Assembly (NCBI GenBank): GCA_030038435.1
Contig: JASHOY010000142.1
Location: forward strand, 1 to 64,000
From: Acidobacteriaceae bacterium
GTDB taxonomy: Bacteria > Acidobacteriota > Terriglobia > Terriglobales > Acidobacteriaceae
Length of the DNA: 64,000 nucleotides
Direction of reading: 5' to 3'
In this document: piece after piece, positions 1,954 through 59,837 of the stretch
How positions within the stretch are numbered: position 1 is the first letter of the stretch
Layout: the number at the start of each line of letters is the position of its first letter
Translations under genes and position numbers: made by a program
Notes under the pieces: generated by a model
What the model was told of the DNA's origin: nothing
Databases searched by the model: none
The model's input: only the letters and a program-made list of their open reading frames with translations

Positions 1954-2190
1954 CGCGCTCCTCCCAAAAAAGACTCAGCCGCTTTGATTCGGGAGCGGCG
2001 CAATGGATTCCATGGATTGGGGAACACAGGTGGGATTGGCCTGCCAACCGCACGGCAAAAGCTGACGCCAGACCGTGATGCAAATACAAAGCGCATCAAC
2101 TCTCCCGCGGGACCGCAATCAAAGGTGTAGGAGCATGTGCGCACCATCTCGCGCGTACCACGCTCTCCGAAGCGGTGTTCCGCTGGCTGC

Positions 2191-2454
2191 TTATTCGGCC
2201 GCCACTGGCTCAATAGAAGCGAAGCGCCCCTTGTTGCCTCGATCACTGAACTTGACGCGCCCAGTCACCTTGGCAAACAGGGTGTCGTCTGAGCCGATCC
2301 CCACGTTGGGGCCCGGCTTGATGCGCGTGCCACGCTGCCGCACGATGATCGAGCCGCCGCTGATCACCTGTCCCGCGAAGGCCTTCACGCCCAAGCGCTG
2401 TGCATTGGAATCACGTCCGTTGGTGGAGCTGCCTCCACCCTTCTTATGTGCCAT
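2191..2454 (-). CDS. rpmA: 50S ribosomal protein L27
   Basis: The 87-residue product starts [16 protein letters not shown], the hallmark N-terminus of L27, which reaches toward the peptidyl transferase centre of the large ribosomal subunit. The rest ([21 protein letters not shown], with KPG and NVG motifs) is colinear with the family. I moved the start from the longer ORF to this ATG because the family begins exactly here, with no Firmicutes-type cleaved leader. It lies downstream of rplU on the same strand, the widely conserved L21-L27 order, separated by 136 nt. Confidence 0.98.
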
Positions 2455-2590
2455 TGCCGAATCCTCATTTGGGCCGTCGGCTTTCCGCCAGACAGCGTAT
2501 ATCGCAACGCTCCCATTCCCGCGCATTCCTAATGAAAGCTGAAGGTCAAGAGCTCAAAAATCGTGGCGCGTCTCAGAATTGCCGCTCGCC

Positions 2591-2926
2591 CTAGCTGGCC
2601 GCCGTCTCCGCATAGGTGATGCCGTCGGCCACAATCGTCTTGATGCGCACTTCGGTCAAATTCTGCCGGTGTCCACGAAGCTTCTTGTACTGCTTCTTCC
2701 GCTTGAGATGAAAGACCAGCACCTTGTCGCCGCGACCTTCGCCCAATACTTCCGCGGTGACCTTGGCGCTCGAGGGCTTGGCAAGCTTCCCCGGTTCGCC
2801 TGAAACCGCCAGCACTTCGCTGAACTCTACTTCCCGGTTCTCTGATGACTTAACGGTCTCGATCTTCAGCACGTCGCCGGGCGTCACCCGGTATTGCTTG
2901 CCTCCGGCACGAATCACTGCGTACAT
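2591..2926 (-). CDS. rplU: 50S ribosomal protein L21
   Basis: 111 residues beginning MYAVIRAGGKQYRV, the conserved L21 start, with the KxKRRKxYxxxxGHRQ-type rRNA-binding stretch near residues 74-90 (KRKKQYKKLRGHRQ). L21 is a structural protein of the 50S subunit that binds 23S rRNA. The ATG is preceded by GGAGG at a suitable distance, so the upstream 55 residues of the ORF are excluded. First gene of the rplU-rpmA unit; a sigma70-like promoter lies about 170 nt upstream. Confidence 0.98.
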   Translation of the reverse strand: MYAVIRAGGKQYRVTPGDVLKIETVKSSENREVEFSEVLAVSGEPGKLAKPSSAKVTAEVLGEGRGDKVLVFHLKRKKQYKKLRGHRQNLTEVRIKTIVADGITYAETAAS

Positions 2927-3101
2927 AACAAATCCTCCAGCGCTGCACATCCGAGCGCGACCATTATTCGTGTGCTTCGATTGGGGCGGATACAGACTGC
3001 GACTGCATCGGAAGCGGGCCGCACATCCGCCGCTCACGGCGGTGAACCCGACACCATTCTGCGCCCCCGACCGGCGGGACCACAGCGCCAAACCATTTGA
3101 T

Positions 3102-3129
3102 TTTATCGTCTACCGACGATCCAGGTCAA
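3102..3129 (-). promoter_or_regulatory. Predicted sigma70 promoter of rplU-rpmA
   Basis: On the minus strand there is TTGACC (5 of 6 to the -35 consensus), a 16-nt spacer and GATAAA (4 of 6 to the -10 consensus). The placement implies a 5' leader of about 165-170 nt before rplU. The leader contains a short GC hairpin (CCGCCG-CTCA-CGGCGG). Whether it is regulatory is not known. Confidence 0.5.
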
Positions 3130-3224
3130 TTTGCAATCCTGACTCGGTTCTGGCATCCTCGGGGGATACCCTCGTTCCCTCATTCGGACCGTCATTATTA
3201 GGAAAACTCTCCTGCTGACTCGCT

Positions 3225-4649
3225 ATGGATCCCCTAAGCTCCGCCGCGATCTCGTGGATTGTCGGACAGACCTTGACCAAGGCTGCCGATGCCCTGCGCG
3301 GTTCCGATGTGGAGCGGGATCTGGACCGCGAATTGAACGAATGGCAGGAGCAGGTTTCGGGTTCATGTAAGGCGACGCTGACAAACATCTTTTCGATTAC
3401 CTCCGTCACCGAAGCCGATAGCCCGCATCTCCTCCGACTTCGGGAGCAGCTCGCTGAAAATCAAATTCCAGCCGTCGAAACCTTCACCAGAGCACTCGTC
3501 GAGAGTTGGGAGCGGGTGCATAGGCAGTCTGAAGTGCAGCCGTTTTTTGCCGCGGAACTGCCCCAAGTCAAGCCTCAGCTGCAAAACCTGGCGAAGCGGT
3601 TCGCTCGGGTATGCCAGACGAACCAGAAGCTGCTTTTCCCGAAGCTTTACGAAGTCATGCAAAGGCTTGATGAGAACCGGCGTGAAGACCGACAAGCGCA
3701 GCGCAAACTTATGCAAATGGTCCAGGACCTCTGGGCCGCGCAAAAGCGTAAGCAAATTGAGGACAGCGACTCAAATTTGCAGTATCCCGCCAGCTTCCTA
3801 TGGCAACCGACTTGGGAACCACGAGAGGCCGTGGAGGGCGCAAATGCTTGCATCGAAGAAGAGGCATCACTTGACGAACTGGCACCCAAGATACCGATTC
3901 TCGTGACCTTTGCTGACAAGCTTTCAACCAGTTGGCAGGACCCGAAACTCGCCTCCATCGCAATTTGGGACAGCAAAGCGGCGATCTCCCGGCCGGTCTA
4001 CCCAACACTCCCGCGTGCTTTGCACGGCAAAGGCCGCGACATGGCGCAACAGAACGACGCCTGGAGCCGATGTTCTCTCTGCATCCCGAGTTACAGCCTG
4101 CCGGTAGAGTGGCGCGTTGAGAGCTATGTGTACTGGCCGCCCTGGAAGGAAGCCAAGAGGCGCGTTGTTCAATCATTCCTGGAAAAGTGCCGCGGCAGGC
4201 AAGTTCGCGGTCTTGTCATCTCCGTACGGCGGGATTCCAATGGTCCGGTGGTGCTCGTGCACTCAACAGATTACGACGATTTCCTGCGGCGGAGCTGGTC
4301 CTATTACAAGGGGCTGGAAGCTGCACTAACCATGGGCGAGTACTACAAATGGAAGACGAGCCGCAGGTCAGAGTCCGCGCTGGAACTTCTTGCCGGGAAT
4401 CTTGCGAAAAGCGGAGAAATCCTCAAGCTTATCCCGCGGCACTACCAAGATCTGTTTGGGGGCCGCAAAATCCAGAAGCAGGATATTCATTTCATGCTGA
4501 CGGGAATCATGCAACGCGAGCAGGAAAGCATCAAACGGCACGAAAGGCCGGCTGCCGGCCACCGTGGCGCCGACAGGTCCGGACCGGCATCTGCGGCCCG
4601 GGCTCCGATCCGGCCAGCGAGGCCCGAAGTGCCTGGCGCGCGTACCTGA
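3225..4649 (+). CDS. Orphan 474-aa protein of unknown function
   Basis: I do not recognise a named family. The first ~165 residues are mostly charged and helical. They begin with a short amphipathic stretch (MDPLSSAAISWIVGQ) and resemble, by eye only, N-terminal helical regions found ahead of STAND/NACHT ATPases in some bacteria. No P-loop follows. The middle (residues ~195-400) is rich in Trp, Tyr and Pro (WQPTW, YVYWPPW, RRSWSYYKG). The last ~35 residues are a Pro/Ala/Arg-rich tail. There is no signal peptide or membrane span. It stands alone: rplU diverges from it and the GT2 gene follows 33 nt later behind its own -10 box. No clear ribosome binding site precedes the ATG. Confidence 0.75.
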   Translation: MDPLSSAAISWIVGQTLTKAADALRGSDVERDLDRELNEWQEQVSGSCKATLTNIFSITSVTEADSPHLLRLREQLAENQIPAVETFTRALVESWERVHRQSEVQPFFAAELPQVKPQLQNLAKRFARVCQTNQKLLFPKLYEVMQRLDENRREDRQAQRKLMQMVQDLWAAQKRKQIEDSDSNLQYPASFLWQPTWEPREAVEGANACIEEEASLDELAPKIPILVTFADKLSTSWQDPKLASIAIWDSKAAISRPVYPTLPRALHGKGRDMAQQNDAWSRCSLCIPSYSLPVEWRVESYVYWPPWKEAKRRVVQSFLEKCRGRQVRGLVISVRRDSNGPVVLVHSTDYDDFLRRSWSYYKGLEAALTMGEYYKWKTSRRSESALELLAGNLAKSGEILKLIPRHYQDLFGGRKIQKQDIHFMLTGIMQREQESIKRHERPAAGHRGADRSGPASAARAPIRPARPEVPGART

Positions 4650-4670
4650 TCCGCAGAGATTCTCGCCCGC

Positions 4671-4676
4671 TATACT
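4671..4676 (+). promoter_or_regulatory. -10 box TATACT placed for leaderless transcription of the GT2 gene
   Basis: TATACT (5 of 6 to TATAAT) ends 6 nt before the ATG at 4683, which would put the transcription start on or next to the A of the start codon. No Shine-Dalgarno sequence is present. The same geometry recurs upstream of other genes in this window. Confidence 0.5.
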
Positions 4677-4682
4677 TGCCCT

Positions 4683-5660
4683 ATGCAGCCCGTTAGCATC
4701 GTGGCCACGGTCCTGAATGAAAAGCAGGACATTGGCCGCATGGTCTCGAGCCTTCTTGCCCAGGAACCACCGGCCGCCGAGGTGGTCATCGTCGACGGCG
4801 GCTCCTCTGACGGCACCTGGGAGTGGCTGGTCGCGGCGCAGGTCTCCGGATCCACCACCGCCAACCGCCTGGTTGCGATCCGCGATGAGTCCTGCAGCCT
4901 CAAATTCTCTCCCGGACCTGTCTCCCGCGGGCGCAACGTCGCCATCACCGCCGCACAATCGGAAATCATCGCCACCGCCGATGCCGGCTGCACCTATGCT
5001 CCCAACTGGCTCGCCAACTTGACCGGGCCGCTGGCGGCCGGCCACGCCCGTTACGCCCTCGGCGGCACCTGTCTTGATCCCGACGACTACACCGTCTGGG
5101 ACGCGGCATCGGCCCCGTTTTTCAGCATCAAGCTGGAGGCCACGGAGCCCACAAAATCCTGCACCGCGCGCTCCATGGCCTTTACCCGCGAACTCTGGCG
5201 GGAGATCGGTGGCTTTCCCGAGAACGTTCTGGTGGGCGAAGACACGCTCTTTGACCTCGAAGCCCGCCGTCGTACCCGGCCCTGCTTCGCCCGCGAAGCC
5301 AAGGCCCTCTATCATCCGCGAAATACTCTCCACTCAGCCGCGCATCAACTGGCTCGCTATGCCATCAGCGACGGGCAGGCCGGCGTGCGCTGGGCGCGCT
5401 TATTCCGTAATGGCGCTCGCTGCCTCGCCGAACTTGCCGCCTTCGCCACTTTACCCTGGACCTGGATTCCGCTCGCCTTGATCTTCTTGCTCGAATGCTG
5501 GTTCGCATTCAAACGGGATTGGCGATTTCTGCCGCGCTTCGGAGTGAAAGCCATATTCGCCCGCTTCGCATTCTCCGTCGCCGTTCCCTGGATCGTTGCC
5601 CTGAATCAGATTCGCGGACAATTCTCCACAGCACGGCTGACCAACAAGCAGAATGCATGA
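4683..5660 (+). CDS. Glycosyltransferase family 2 (GT-A fold)
   Basis: 325 residues. The N-terminus (VSIVATVLNE, then VDGGSSDGT) is the nucleotide-sugar binding start of GT2 enzymes. A DAGC acidic motif near residue 100 takes the place of DxD, and GEDTLFDLEA near 180 is the ED motif of the catalytic base region. The last ~100 residues contain one or two hydrophobic segments, so the enzyme is probably inner-membrane associated. Such enzymes add sugars to lipids or polysaccharides of the envelope; donor and acceptor are unknown. A small membrane protein follows on the same strand. Confidence 0.9.
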   Translation: MQPVSIVATVLNEKQDIGRMVSSLLAQEPPAAEVVIVDGGSSDGTWEWLVAAQVSGSTTANRLVAIRDESCSLKFSPGPVSRGRNVAITAAQSEIIATADAGCTYAPNWLANLTGPLAAGHARYALGGTCLDPDDYTVWDAASAPFFSIKLEATEPTKSCTARSMAFTRELWREIGGFPENVLVGEDTLFDLEARRRTRPCFAREAKALYHPRNTLHSAAHQLARYAISDGQAGVRWARLFRNGARCLAELAAFATLPWTWIPLALIFLLECWFAFKRDWRFLPRFGVKAIFARFAFSVAVPWIVALNQIRGQFSTARLTNKQNA

Positions 5661-5815
5661 TGGGCCAAAGCTGATCGGCAAAGTCATTGGCAACCCCGGT
5701 GCGCAGTTCCCGCCGCCTGCCTGAATCTAACCCCGTTGCGGGGCCGTAAAGGTGAAGCCGAACGCTCATTCGCCGTAAAATGACTGCTACGGGCACGTGC
5801 AAGCGGCAGGCTGAC

Positions 5816-6178
5816 ATGAATAACCGCGACATCACAATTTCTCCCGGCGCTCGCCTTCGCACCGCAATGCTGCTGGCGGTTGGCGCCGACGTGTTGGAGA
5901 TGATCATCCTCCCGTTCTTTGTCGAAGGATTCGATTCTCCAGCCGCCGATCTGCTGGACCTTTGCGTAGGCGGAGCGCTTACCTGGCTGCTGGGCTGGCA
6001 TTGGGAATTTGCGCCGTCTTTTCTCGCCAAGCTCGTCCCCGGCGCCGATCTGGCCCCGCTCTGGACGCTGGCCGTGGCTAACGTGTATCGCAAATCGAGG
6101 CAAATCCGGGAACCCGGCGAAGAACCGCGAGTAGAGCGCCATGTCGGTAGCGGTGAGGCTCATCCACGTCGCTCTTAG
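5816..6178 (+). CDS. Small membrane protein, unknown function
   Basis: 120 residues from the internal ATG (MNNRDITISPG). I prefer this start because the upstream extension reads like non-coding sequence. Hydrophobic stretches lie around residues 17-35 and 45-60, and the C-terminal part is charged. No family was recognised. It sits between the GT2 gene and trpC on the same strand. Codon pattern and ORF quality look real, but there is no independent support. Confidence 0.6.
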   Translation: MNNRDITISPGARLRTAMLLAVGADVLEMIILPFFVEGFDSPAADLLDLCVGGALTWLLGWHWEFAPSFLAKLVPGADLAPLWTLAVANVYRKSRQIREPGEEPRVERHVGSGEAHPRRS

Positions 6179-22450: not shown

Positions 22451-23245
22451 CTACGGCTTGGCGCTTTTTGTATACCCGGCCGTCATTATGCGGAGCAGCA
22501 GTCCGCTTCCGCTGTAGAGCACAATCTTGCTTTTGTCTGAGCTGAGGACGATCATGCCAAGCGGGTCACTTCTACCGGCGTGATCGATGCGGATGCTGGT
22601 GTAACCGTAAACGCCGCAGGCTTGCGTGGAAAAGAGCCACCAGGCCTGCAGCCGGCGGTTGCCTTCCACAACGCCTCGGCACGGGTCGCCGGGCCCGGTT
22701 AGCGGGAGCCCAAGGATTCCGTAAGGCGTCGGCCGGCCCACGGTTCTGATTCCGATTGCCACCGGGCCGCCTCCGCGGTAAACCTCTTCGCCCCCGATTT
22801 GCCTGAAGGTTGCCACTTCCGGCGGCAATCCCCGCGAAGCCTCCTCCTCGGGCGTCTGTGCTTCGCTTACCTCAATTGGCGAAGCCAGCGCACGCAGGTC
22901 GAAGCGCAGCGGGATCAGCCTTCCTTTCACTTTCACTGCCTCGAAGACAATTTCGAGACGCGCCGGCACGATGCCGGCACCGCTTGCCTCCACCACGCGA
23001 CCCTCGACTTTAGTCCTTCTGCGAACCGGCGTGCCAGGGACGTTTTGCATCACGGTGGCCTGGATCCGGCGGCCGGCCCGCACCTTGGCGGAGTTCAGCA
23101 CTCCATCAAGGCTGACGGGAAGAATCGTTCCCGGCGGAATGGAGCTTCGCGCTGCTGCGGTGAGGGGCATCGACAACACCATGGCAAGGACGCGGGAAAT
23201 GCGCCTGGCGCATTCCCAGTCGAATTTGACCTTCAGCGTGATCAC
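22451..23245 (-). CDS. Exported protein with TrbI/VirB10-like beta-barrel features
   Basis: 264 residues with a GTG start. A hydrophobic N-terminal stretch (VLAMVLSMPLTAAARSS) looks like a signal peptide or anchor. The following IPPGTILPVSLDGVLNSAKV and GRRIQATVMQNVPG resemble the strand pattern of VirB10/TrbI conjugation proteins, a domain acidobacteria also carry in stand-alone exported proteins. No other secretion gene is nearby. A second protein with a similar pattern is at 50472. The gene diverges from the macrodomain gene and may be co-transcribed with the radical SAM gene. Confidence 0.7.
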   Translation of the reverse strand: MITLKVKFDWECARRISRVLAMVLSMPLTAAARSSIPPGTILPVSLDGVLNSAKVRAGRRIQATVMQNVPGTPVRRRTKVEGRVVEASGAGIVPARLEIVFEAVKVKGRLIPLRFDLRALASPIEVSEAQTPEEEASRGLPPEVATFRQIGGEEVYRGGGPVAIGIRTVGRPTPYGILGLPLTGPGDPCRGVVEGNRRLQAWWLFSTQACGVYGYTSIRIDHAGRSDPLGMIVLSSDKSKIVLYSGSGLLLRIMTAGYTKSAKP

Positions 23246-23345
23246 AGCGTCGCCTCTTACAGGATTACACTTTCAGCCAGGCAGCGGTACCCTTTCTGGG
23301 ATGGAGAGCGAAATGGCGCAGCCAACCGATGCGCAGGAGGCGGCG

Positions 23346-23864
23346 ATGGACAGGATTTCAGTGCTGAAGACGGATATCACGACGCTCGATGTGGACGCGA
23401 TTGTGAATGCAGCCAATACCACTTTGCTTGGTGGGGGAGGGGTGGATGGGGCGATTCATCGCGCTGCGGGAGCGGAGCTTTACGACGAATGCGCCGGGCT
23501 GGGAGGCTGCGAAACCGGCGGCGCCAAACTGACCAAAGGCTACCGGCTGCCGGCACGCTATGTAATTCACACCGTCGGTCCGGTGTGGACCGGCGGCGAT
23601 CGCGGCGAGCGCGATCTGCTGGCAAGCTGCTATCGCGAGTGTTTCAGGATTGCCCGCGAGCGGGGCTTCAAGACCATTGCCTTTCCTGCCATCAGTTGCG
23701 GCGTTTATCGTTTTCCCGTGGACGAAGCGGTAAGAATCGCCTTGCGCGAAACGCAGGAGGCGCTGAAGACAAACGGGCACATTGAAAAGGTGATCTTCGC
23801 ATGTTTTGGAGAGGATACCTATGAGGCTTATCGAAGTTATTTGCGTACGCCGAAGGGCGCATGA
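23346..23864 (+). CDS. Macrodomain (ADP-ribose-binding) protein
   Basis: 172 residues from the ATG preceded by AGGAGG, which decides against the longer ORF starts. The sequence follows the YmdB/MacroD pattern: DAIVNAANTTLLGGGGVDGAIHR (ligand loop), then VIHTVGPVW and FPAISCGVYRFP. Such enzymes hydrolyse O-acetyl-ADP-ribose or remove mono-ADP-ribose from proteins or nucleic acids in the cytosol. Convergent with the TonB receptor gene, with a terminator between them. Confidence 0.95.
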   Translation: MDRISVLKTDITTLDVDAIVNAANTTLLGGGGVDGAIHRAAGAELYDECAGLGGCETGGAKLTKGYRLPARYVIHTVGPVWTGGDRGERDLLASCYRECFRIARERGFKTIAFPAISCGVYRFPVDEAVRIALRETQEALKTNGHIEKVIFACFGEDTYEAYRSYLRTPKGA

Positions 23865-58278: not shown

Positions 58279-58511
58279 CGCGATGCGTCACACTATGCTA
58301 GATTGAAAGACGCCTTGTGCGCAGTAACTTTTCCGGTGCGAAAAGCGGCGACTGCCGGCAGGAAGGCGAGGTGCCGGGATGGGGTCGAGCCCGGTACAGG
58401 TTGAATCTTTCCGTGTCAGTGAATTGTCAAAACCAAACGGTCAGCAGGCGCTAACTGGTTGTGTTGATTCCCAAATCTGCCCCGCCGGGTATTCCTGGCG
58501 AAGGAGCAGCC

Positions 58512-59837
58512 ATGCGTTATGAAGACATCCCCAAGCTTGCGACCTGGAAGAACGATACCTCAGTGTTGCGAAGATCGGCTTCCGGCAGCACGTTAAACAA
58601 GATCGACGCGGATATCGACAACTACTGGAAGAGCTACTCGTCCATGGTCAAGCGGAATCTGCTGACCGACGTCAACAGCAACATCCGTAACTGGGAGAAC
58701 ATCAACGGCACGACGGTATCCTTCCATCCCGTCGTGGTCGCGCTGAAAGAGGTGATCACCCGCAAACTGCGGGAACTTTCGCCTTCGGCATACAGGTACA
58801 GGCAAGTGATGTGCCTGGGATTCCGCGTGGGCTGCAATACGGTCACGGATGAGTATTTCCGCTATTCGCCCAACGATGGCGTGGACATGCGCAAGAAATG
58901 CGATGAAATGATGCACGCCATCCGCTGCGCGCAAGGCTTTGTTGCCGCTTCAGGCATGGACAGCGACGAAACCCTGAAGATTTTCATGGCGCCGGAATTC
59001 TATTTTCGCGGGGCAAACGGCGCATATTCGCACGACCTGGTGGCAAGCATTCTTCCCACGATGACGGGGCTGGGAATGGGCGGCAATGCTTATGAACACT
59101 GGCTGTTTGTATACGGCACGGCGATTGCCGCCAGCGAGGAGGAGTTCACCTGCTGCCGGGTCTGCGGCCCCAACCCGAACACGGTGGAGTTTATCCGCGA
59201 TCCGACGAGCCGCCTGAGTGCGACGGGGATTCACAAAAAAACCCAGGCGGTATGCAAGACGAATCCCGCGCACCCCATCGAGATGAGAACTTACGGTGCT
59301 GAAGTTCAGAACGTGGCGTTGATTCAGAAAGGCACCGACATGCACATGGTGGTGAAGGAATACATATCGGGTATTGATTACAAGGGCAACCAGGTAAATG
59401 TGATTGAGGGGAAAGGAAAAAATCGCATTGTGAAGACATTGAACGCAATTGCACCGCAGGGCAGCAACATGAGCCGGATCGCTTCCAAATTTCAGGACGA
59501 GCGCATGGGCGGCGGTGTATTTACGATGGACGGGATTACATTCGGCATGGAGATTTGTCTGGATCATATCCAGTCCACTGGCGCGGCGGGGCGCCTGGGG
59601 CCCTATGCCAGCACCATTCAGGTGCTGCTGATCCCGTCGTATGGAATGGACATTACCCACCACTCCTGCGTTTCGGGCGGGGTCATCTTCAATGTGGACG
59701 GGCGAGGCGCCGGAACATCCAACGTTGTTGTGAAGGGGCACACGGGGGTGCCGATCACGGGGACTTCAATTGCGGCGCCCAATACCGGCGGCCAGATTGA
59801 GAGATGGGGACCGTTCCCCATTCCCAGGCGGGGATGA
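58512..59837 (+). CDS. Orphan divergent nitrilase-superfamily (carbon-nitrogen hydrolase) protein
   Basis: 441 residues from the ATG after AAGGAG at good spacing. I recognise the nitrilase triad: Glu162 in APEFYFRG, Lys282 in QNVALIQKG...VVKEYIS, and Cys349 in FGMEICLDH, followed by VLLIPSYGMD as in C-N hydrolases. Order and spacing fit a nitrilase fold. The insert between Glu and Lys is long and Cys-rich (TCCRVCG, then a distant Cys), unlike classical members, and an extra ~95 residues precede the fold. No signal peptide, so cytosolic. Substrate unknown; a C-N bond hydrolase or amidase is inferred. It stands alone with a terminator after it. Confidence 0.75.
   Translation: MRYEDIPKLATWKNDTSVLRRSASGSTLNKIDADIDNYWKSYSSMVKRNLLTDVNSNIRNWENINGTTVSFHPVVVALKEVITRKLRELSPSAYRYRQVMCLGFRVGCNTVTDEYFRYSPNDGVDMRKKCDEMMHAIRCAQGFVAASGMDSDETLKIFMAPEFYFRGANGAYSHDLVASILPTMTGLGMGGNAYEHWLFVYGTAIAASEEEFTCCRVCGPNPNTVEFIRDPTSRLSATGIHKKTQAVCKTNPAHPIEMRTYGAEVQNVALIQKGTDMHMVVKEYISGIDYKGNQVNVIEGKGKNRIVKTLNAIAPQGSNMSRIASKFQDERMGGGVFTMDGITFGMEICLDHIQSTGAAGRLGPYASTIQVLLIPSYGMDITHHSCVSGGVIFNVDGRGAGTSNVVVKGHTGVPITGTSIAAPNTGGQIERWGPFPIPRRG

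What the first reader, a model, noticed from the sequence alone, without database searches (positions are those of the whole stretch)
3225..4649. Orphan 474-aa protein with STAND-like N-terminal helices but no NTPase
I recognise no family. The N-terminal ~165 residues resemble helical regions ahead of NACHT/STAND ATPases in bacterial immune-type proteins, but no P-loop follows; instead there is a Trp/Tyr-rich domain and a basic tail. It is monocistronic and inserted between rplU and a GT2 gene. A stand-alone adaptor or effector role is possible and speculative.
Basis: inference. Interest (0 to 1): 0.6.

Follow-up and report, generated by a model that had tools for sequence, protein, structure and literature searches.

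The report
Orphan gene inserted beside rplU
A real protein-coding gene with no detectable relative anywhere searched sits alone on a 1.5-kb stretch of DNA, absent at this spot in every relative where the spot could be read, between a ribosomal-protein gene and a sugar-transferase gene; what it does is unknown, and the suggested kinship to bacterial immune (STAND) proteins found no support.

Summary
The ORF is real: clear codon bias in one frame only, 474 aa, no P-loop. It is a genuine ORFan. Pfam, NCBIfam, PHROGs and PDB sequences give nothing; weak PADLOC matches are reproduced by shuffled and reversed controls. Searches of genus, family, phylum, Pseudomonadota and Verrucomicrobiota genome samples, plasmids, phages and IMG/VR found no relative. 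The strongest result is an empty site. In the relative with the closest GT2 protein, rplU and the GT2 gene are divergent neighbours 239 bp apart. Homology runs to window 3132, three bases outside the rplU -35 box, and resumes at 4667, at the GT2 -10 box; the 1,534 bp between, holding only this gene, replace 17 bp. Nine other same-genus relatives with this gene pair also lack it, and one of those carries an IS1-like transposon in the same gap. The gene was therefore probably gained. The N-terminal part is predicted helical with a coiled-coil-like end, but a link to NACHT/STAND N-termini is unsupported: no family match, no similarity to NACHT proteins of the same bacterial family. Structure prediction failed (pLDDT 36-41). 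Function stays open; a stand-alone accessory or conflict-type protein is plausible but unproven. Low to moderate interest.

The parts
3133..4666 (.). Inserted segment (1,534 bp) that carries only this gene; absent from the corresponding gap in the relative with the closest GT2 protein, where 17 bp stand in its place
   Evidence: Local alignment of window to L026 (G053): left homology 2927-3132 score 182 (shuffle max 23), right homology 4667-4681 score 30 (shuffle max 27); no homology in the middle. Single copy in the genome. No inverted repeats at the ends, no target duplication longer than 5 bp.
3225..4649 (+). ORFan gene, 474 aa, soluble (no transmembrane stretch)
   Evidence: no relatives.
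3225..3770 (+). Residues 1-182: predicted all-helical region ending in a long, coiled-coil-like helix (about 134-180)
   Evidence: Propensity and heptad scores; single-sequence AF2, helices only, mean pLDDT 41. Low confidence.
3771..4544 (+). Residues 183-440: Trp/Tyr-rich, mixed alpha/beta region of unknown fold
   Evidence: 10 W and 11 Y in 258 residues; AF2 pLDDT 36, no usable fold.
4545..4646 (+). Residues 441-474: Arg/Pro/Ala-rich, probably disordered tail; GC 78%, second codon positions 85% GC, so perhaps read-through into non-coding DNA
   Evidence: the read-through idea is inference.
3100..3129 (-). Probable rplU promoter (TTGACC, 18, TAAAAT); the insertion begins 3 bp outside its -35 box
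   Evidence: Consensus scan; the stretch is conserved in relatives.
4671..4676 (+). Probable GT2 -10 box (TATACT), 6 nt before the GT2 ATG; conserved GCTATACT or GTTATACT in the gaps of the relatives; the insertion ends just before it
   Evidence: Gap sequences of nine relatives and L047; the function as a promoter is inference.
2591..2926 (-). rplU (ribosomal protein L21), left neighbour
   Evidence: Recognised from the sequence; same-genus matches at 70-82% identity.
4683..5660 (+). Family 2 glycosyltransferase gene, right neighbour
   Evidence: Pfam PF00535 1.5e-16; present in 19 other same-genus genomes at 1e-30.

Best explanation
This is a recently gained, species-restricted accessory gene: a single-gene insertion of foreign DNA into the gap between the divergent rplU and GT2 promoters. 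SHOWN: it is a coding frame, it has no detectable relative, and the relative with the closest GT2 protein has the uninterrupted gap. INFERRED: it came by horizontal transfer from a poorly sampled source (phage, plasmid or uncultured bacterium) and joined by illegitimate recombination, since no transposon ends are seen. INFERRED, weak: the product is a cytoplasmic protein in which the helical, coiled-coil-like N-terminal region brings copies together and the aromatic-rich alpha/beta region does the work (binding or catalysis). A stand-alone conflict or defence role is my leading guess for the function, at roughly one in four; the rest is spread over other accessory roles and no role at all.
For: Codon bias in this frame only. 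Empty site in G053/L026 with sharp borders at 3132 and 4667. Ten same-genus genomes keep rplU next to GT2 and none has this gene there. None of the 58 same-genus genomes searched has it anywhere, nor do samples of the phylum, family and class, Pseudomonadota (its one weak match is low-complexity) or Verrucomicrobiota. GC 0.564 lies in the lowest 3% of equal-sized stretches of the window; tetranucleotide usage is only mildly unusual (10% are further off). The same gap holds a 2,988-bp IS1-like transposon with passengers in G057 (L047:2076-5063, 8-bp target duplication TACACACC) and short extra sequence in G041 and G054, so the gap tolerates insertions. That bacterial ORFans can be horizontally acquired is the subject of PMC2275313 (abstract only seen).
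Against: No donor or intermediate was found, so transfer is inferred from absence and composition. No insertion machinery is visible. Codon usage is not far from that of the neighbours. Nothing direct speaks for any function: no family, fold, partner gene or defence neighbourhood. The borders rest on one close relative; the right-hand match is short (15 bp, score 30 against a shuffle maximum of 27), though the conserved promoter-like motif supports it.
Confidence: 0.6

Rival explanations
1. A stand-alone relative of the helical N-terminal regions of NACHT/STAND immune proteins that has lost or never had the ATPase and serves as adaptor or effector.
For: Helical, coiled-coil-like N-terminal region; the architecture loosely recalls the region ahead of NACHT in L058 (by eye only); sporadic occurrence.
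Against: No Pfam, NCBIfam or PADLOC match above noise; weak PADLOC hits are equalled or exceeded by class-shuffled and reversed sequences (up to 4e-5 for a shuffle); no similarity to NACHT loci of the same family (132 of 500 shuffles score as high against L058); no P-loop; no defence genes nearby.
Confidence: 0.1
2. An old gene of the lineage that evolves fast and was lost in the relatives sampled.
For: Codon usage is not strongly foreign; tetranucleotide usage is within the range of the window.
Against: Ten same-genus genomes with the rplU-GT2 pair all lack it, and none of 58 has it anywhere; the sharp 17-bp alternative in G053 fits insertion better than repeated clean deletion.
Confidence: 0.12
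3. A gene left behind by a phage or other mobile element, with a structural or regulatory role for the element and no benefit to the host.
For: The site takes up mobile DNA in G057; ORFans of this kind are common on mobile elements (general knowledge).
Against: No PHROGs match, no relative in IMG/VR, phage or plasmid records; no integrase or transposon ends. Cannot be excluded; it overlaps with the best explanation as to origin.
Confidence: 0.2
4. A chance open frame or a gene born from non-coding DNA.
For: No relatives; the last 34 codons look non-coding (GC 78%).
Against: 474 codons open with sustained third-position and codon bias along the body; shuffles reach at most 275 codons; the DNA itself is not present in relatives as non-coding sequence.
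Confidence: 0.04

Closest known systems
Horizontally acquired bacterial ORFans (PMC2275313; taxonomically restricted genes, PMC1824705)
   Same: Coding frame without relatives, lower GC than the surroundings, found in one genome only, inserted between conserved genes
   Different: Longer (474 aa) than I would expect of a typical ORFan (recalled, not tested), with an apparent two-part layout; no mobile element attached
NACHT/STAND NTPases of bacterial antiphage systems
   Same: A helical N-terminal region with a coiled-coil-like end (prediction only)
   Different: No P-loop NTPase, no repeat region recognised, no detectable sequence similarity
PbeC (PADLOC PDLC02753; PbeABCD archaeal antiviral system, PMC6459918) and VakA (PDLC02911)
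   Same: Weak HMM scores over the helical stretch (E 0.002-0.04)
   Different: Controls with shuffled or reversed sequence score as well against other helical models; no partner genes seen; treated as noise

Membership tests
NACHT/STAND NTPase | Walker A (P-loop) and Walker B motifs | tested here: not met
   No GxxxxGK[ST], no loose P-loop, no hydrophobic-D[DE] motif
NACHT/STAND NTPase | Profile match to NACHT or another STAND domain | tested here: not met
   Pfam, NCBIfam, PADLOC: nothing
N-terminal helical regions of NACHT proteins | Sequence or profile similarity | tested here: not met
   No Pfam match; phmmer against open frames of 30 NACHT-matching loci of the same family: best E 0.03, in a different frame from the NACHT protein; L058 alignment at chance level. 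Distant relatives would be missed.
N-terminal helical regions of NACHT proteins | Shared fold | tested here: inconclusive
   Model pLDDT 41, pTM 0.26; too poor for a fold search
Known antiphage defence protein | PADLOC match above the noise of composition controls | tested here: not met
   PbeC 0.0024 and VakA 0.006 against control sequences with 4.2e-5, 0.008, 0.012
Known antiphage defence protein | Protection in a phage challenge | not testable with these tools
   Needs experiment
Horizontally acquired ORFan | Coding frame without relatives in databases | tested here: met
   limits: collection scans depend on short exact motifs, genome samples are partial
Horizontally acquired ORFan | Empty site in a close relative | tested here: met
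   G053/L026
Horizontally acquired ORFan | Atypical composition | tested here: inconclusive
   GC in lowest 3% of the window, tetranucleotides only at the 10% mark
Transposon cargo | Terminal inverted repeats, target duplication, transposase | tested here: not met
   None at the borders; single copy

The most novel reading that the evidence does not exclude
The gene encodes a new family and perhaps a new fold of single-gene defence effector: the coiled-coil-like N-terminal part oligomerises and the aromatic-rich domain senses or attacks an invader, carried as a one-gene insertion.
Probability: 0.1. Interest if true: 0.6.

Novelty: new member of a known kind. Interest (0 to 1): 0.25.

Why it matters
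It is a clean case of a single-gene insertion of a sequence-unique protein, with an empty site in a relative, placed between two probable promoters; and it shows that this rplU-GT2 gap takes up foreign DNA in more than one species. If the protein proved active against phages it would be a defence family invisible to present profile libraries; nothing here shows that.

Tried and rejected
Profile libraries Pfam, NCBIfam, PADLOC, PHROGs and PDB sequences: nothing above noise; PADLOC hits rejected after shuffle control. tblastn in plasmids and phages: none. Motif scans of IMG/VR and GTDB genomes with the protein, and of IMG/VR with two synthetic alignments carrying conservative substitutions: no relative. 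Weak family hits at E 0.01-0.1 often have stops and lie at scattered positions; taken as chance. The Pseudomonadota match covers the low-complexity tail region and was not reproduced by tblastn on the locus. Structure prediction of residues 180-446 and 1-182 without relatives: pLDDT 36 and 41; no fold search was run on them, as matches would be meaningless. Motif searches for nuclease signatures gave only chance-level patterns.

Full report
THE OBSERVATION. The frame 3225-4649 (+) encodes 474 residues. Its GC by codon position (0.62/0.45/0.66) follows the pattern of the neighbouring genes, and its codon-adaptation index against seven neighbouring genes is 0.58, against 0.40-0.53 for the other five frames, each of which holds 8-13 stops; the longest open run in 200 shuffles of the region was 275 codons. 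I take it as a real gene. The last 34 codons are different (GC 78%, second positions 85%), which hints at read-through into non-coding DNA (inference).

NO RELATIVES. Pfam gives nothing better than E 0.28, NCBIfam 0.077, PHROGs none, PDB sequences 0.23. PADLOC shows PbeC at 0.008 and VakA at 0.043, sharpening to 0.0024 and 0.006 when only the first 190 residues are given. In that same search, one of six class-shuffled copies reached 4.2e-5 with ZorA, another 0.012 with a type I specificity subunit, and the reversed sequence 0.008 with PD-T4-6; the weak hits are what a helix-rich sequence of this make-up can yield. Whole-genome searches found only the gene itself: 58 same-genus genomes and 40 further ones, 396 of the phylum, 300 of the family, 278 of the class with residues 180-446, 399 in the phylum of a Pseudomonas genome (its single match covers the low-complexity tail region) and 267 in the phylum of a Verrucomicrobia genome. 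The samples around the window's own genome overlap. Plasmids, phages, IMG/VR and a GTDB motif scan were also empty. There is no second copy of the DNA or of the N-terminal part in the genome. The collection scans need short conserved motifs, so distant relatives may have been missed.

THE EMPTY SITE. The GT2 gene to the right is found in 19 other same-genus genomes. In ten of them rplU lies next to it, divergently, without the orphan. In G053 (L026), the relative with the closest GT2 (78% identical), the gap is 239 bp: its first 206 bp align with window 2927-3132 (score 182, shuffle maximum 23) and its end aligns with 4667-4681 (score 30, shuffle maximum 27); between them G053 has 17 bp where the window has 1,534 bp. 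The left border is 3 bp outside the predicted rplU -35 box and the right border lies just before a TATACT motif that is conserved in the relatives and sits 6 nt before the GT2 start (promoter function inferred). So the insertion fits between two divergent promoters. No inverted repeats or target duplication longer than 5 bp mark its ends.

THE SITE TAKES UP OTHER DNA. In G057 the same gap is 3.2 kb long and holds a 2,988-bp element with inverted ends (GGTAGTGTCC), an 8-bp target duplication (TACACACC), an IS1-like transposase (Pfam 2e-5) and two passenger proteins without Pfam match. In G041 and G054 the gap is 611 and 530 bp and holds a short frame that reads as a membrane protein. In most of the other same-genus genomes fetched, GT2 is not found within about 4 kb of rplU. 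GC of the orphan body is 0.564, in the lowest 3% of equal stretches of the window; tetranucleotide usage is only mildly odd.

WHAT THE PROTEIN MAY BE. Residues 1-182 are helical by propensity and in a low-confidence model, with a heptad-like stretch near 140-175; residues 183-440 are mixed and rich in Trp and Tyr; no transmembrane stretch. Models of both parts fail (pLDDT 36 and 41), so no fold statement is made and no fold search was run.

THE STAND READING. I searched NACHT in 120 genomes of the family and compared the open frames of 30 matching loci with the orphan. The best score (E 0.03) is in another frame than the NACHT protein; the one locus with a similar-looking helical N-terminus, L058, aligns no better than shuffles of it (132 of 500 as good). 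There is no P-loop or Walker B. The neighbourhood is ribosomal protein, SDR, GT2 and trp genes. The reading is not supported; it is not excluded either, since single-sequence comparison cannot see remote kinship.

VERDICT. A real, sequence-unique gene, gained by its genome as a one-gene insertion in a gap that takes up other DNA in relatives. Its function is unknown; I put a conflict or defence role at about one in four and give low to moderate interest.

Noticed in passing
L047 (G057) 2076-5063: IS1-like transposon of 2,988 bp with two passenger genes of unknown family, inserted in the same rplU-GT2 gap, 8-bp target duplication TACACACC.
   Followed up: partly
L029 (G041) and L035 (G054), rplU-GT2 gap: Extra 300-350 bp with a short frame that reads as a membrane protein, similar to each other by eye.
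   Followed up: no
window 58461-59837 (+): 458-aa frame with no Pfam match at 0.01; by eye it recalls carbon-nitrogen hydrolases.
   Followed up: no
window 22971-23864 (+): Macro-domain protein (PF01661, 2.8e-46).
   Followed up: no
window 5780-6178 (+): 132-aa frame between GT2 and trpC without Pfam match; not seen next to GT2 in the relatives' loci examined.
   Followed up: no
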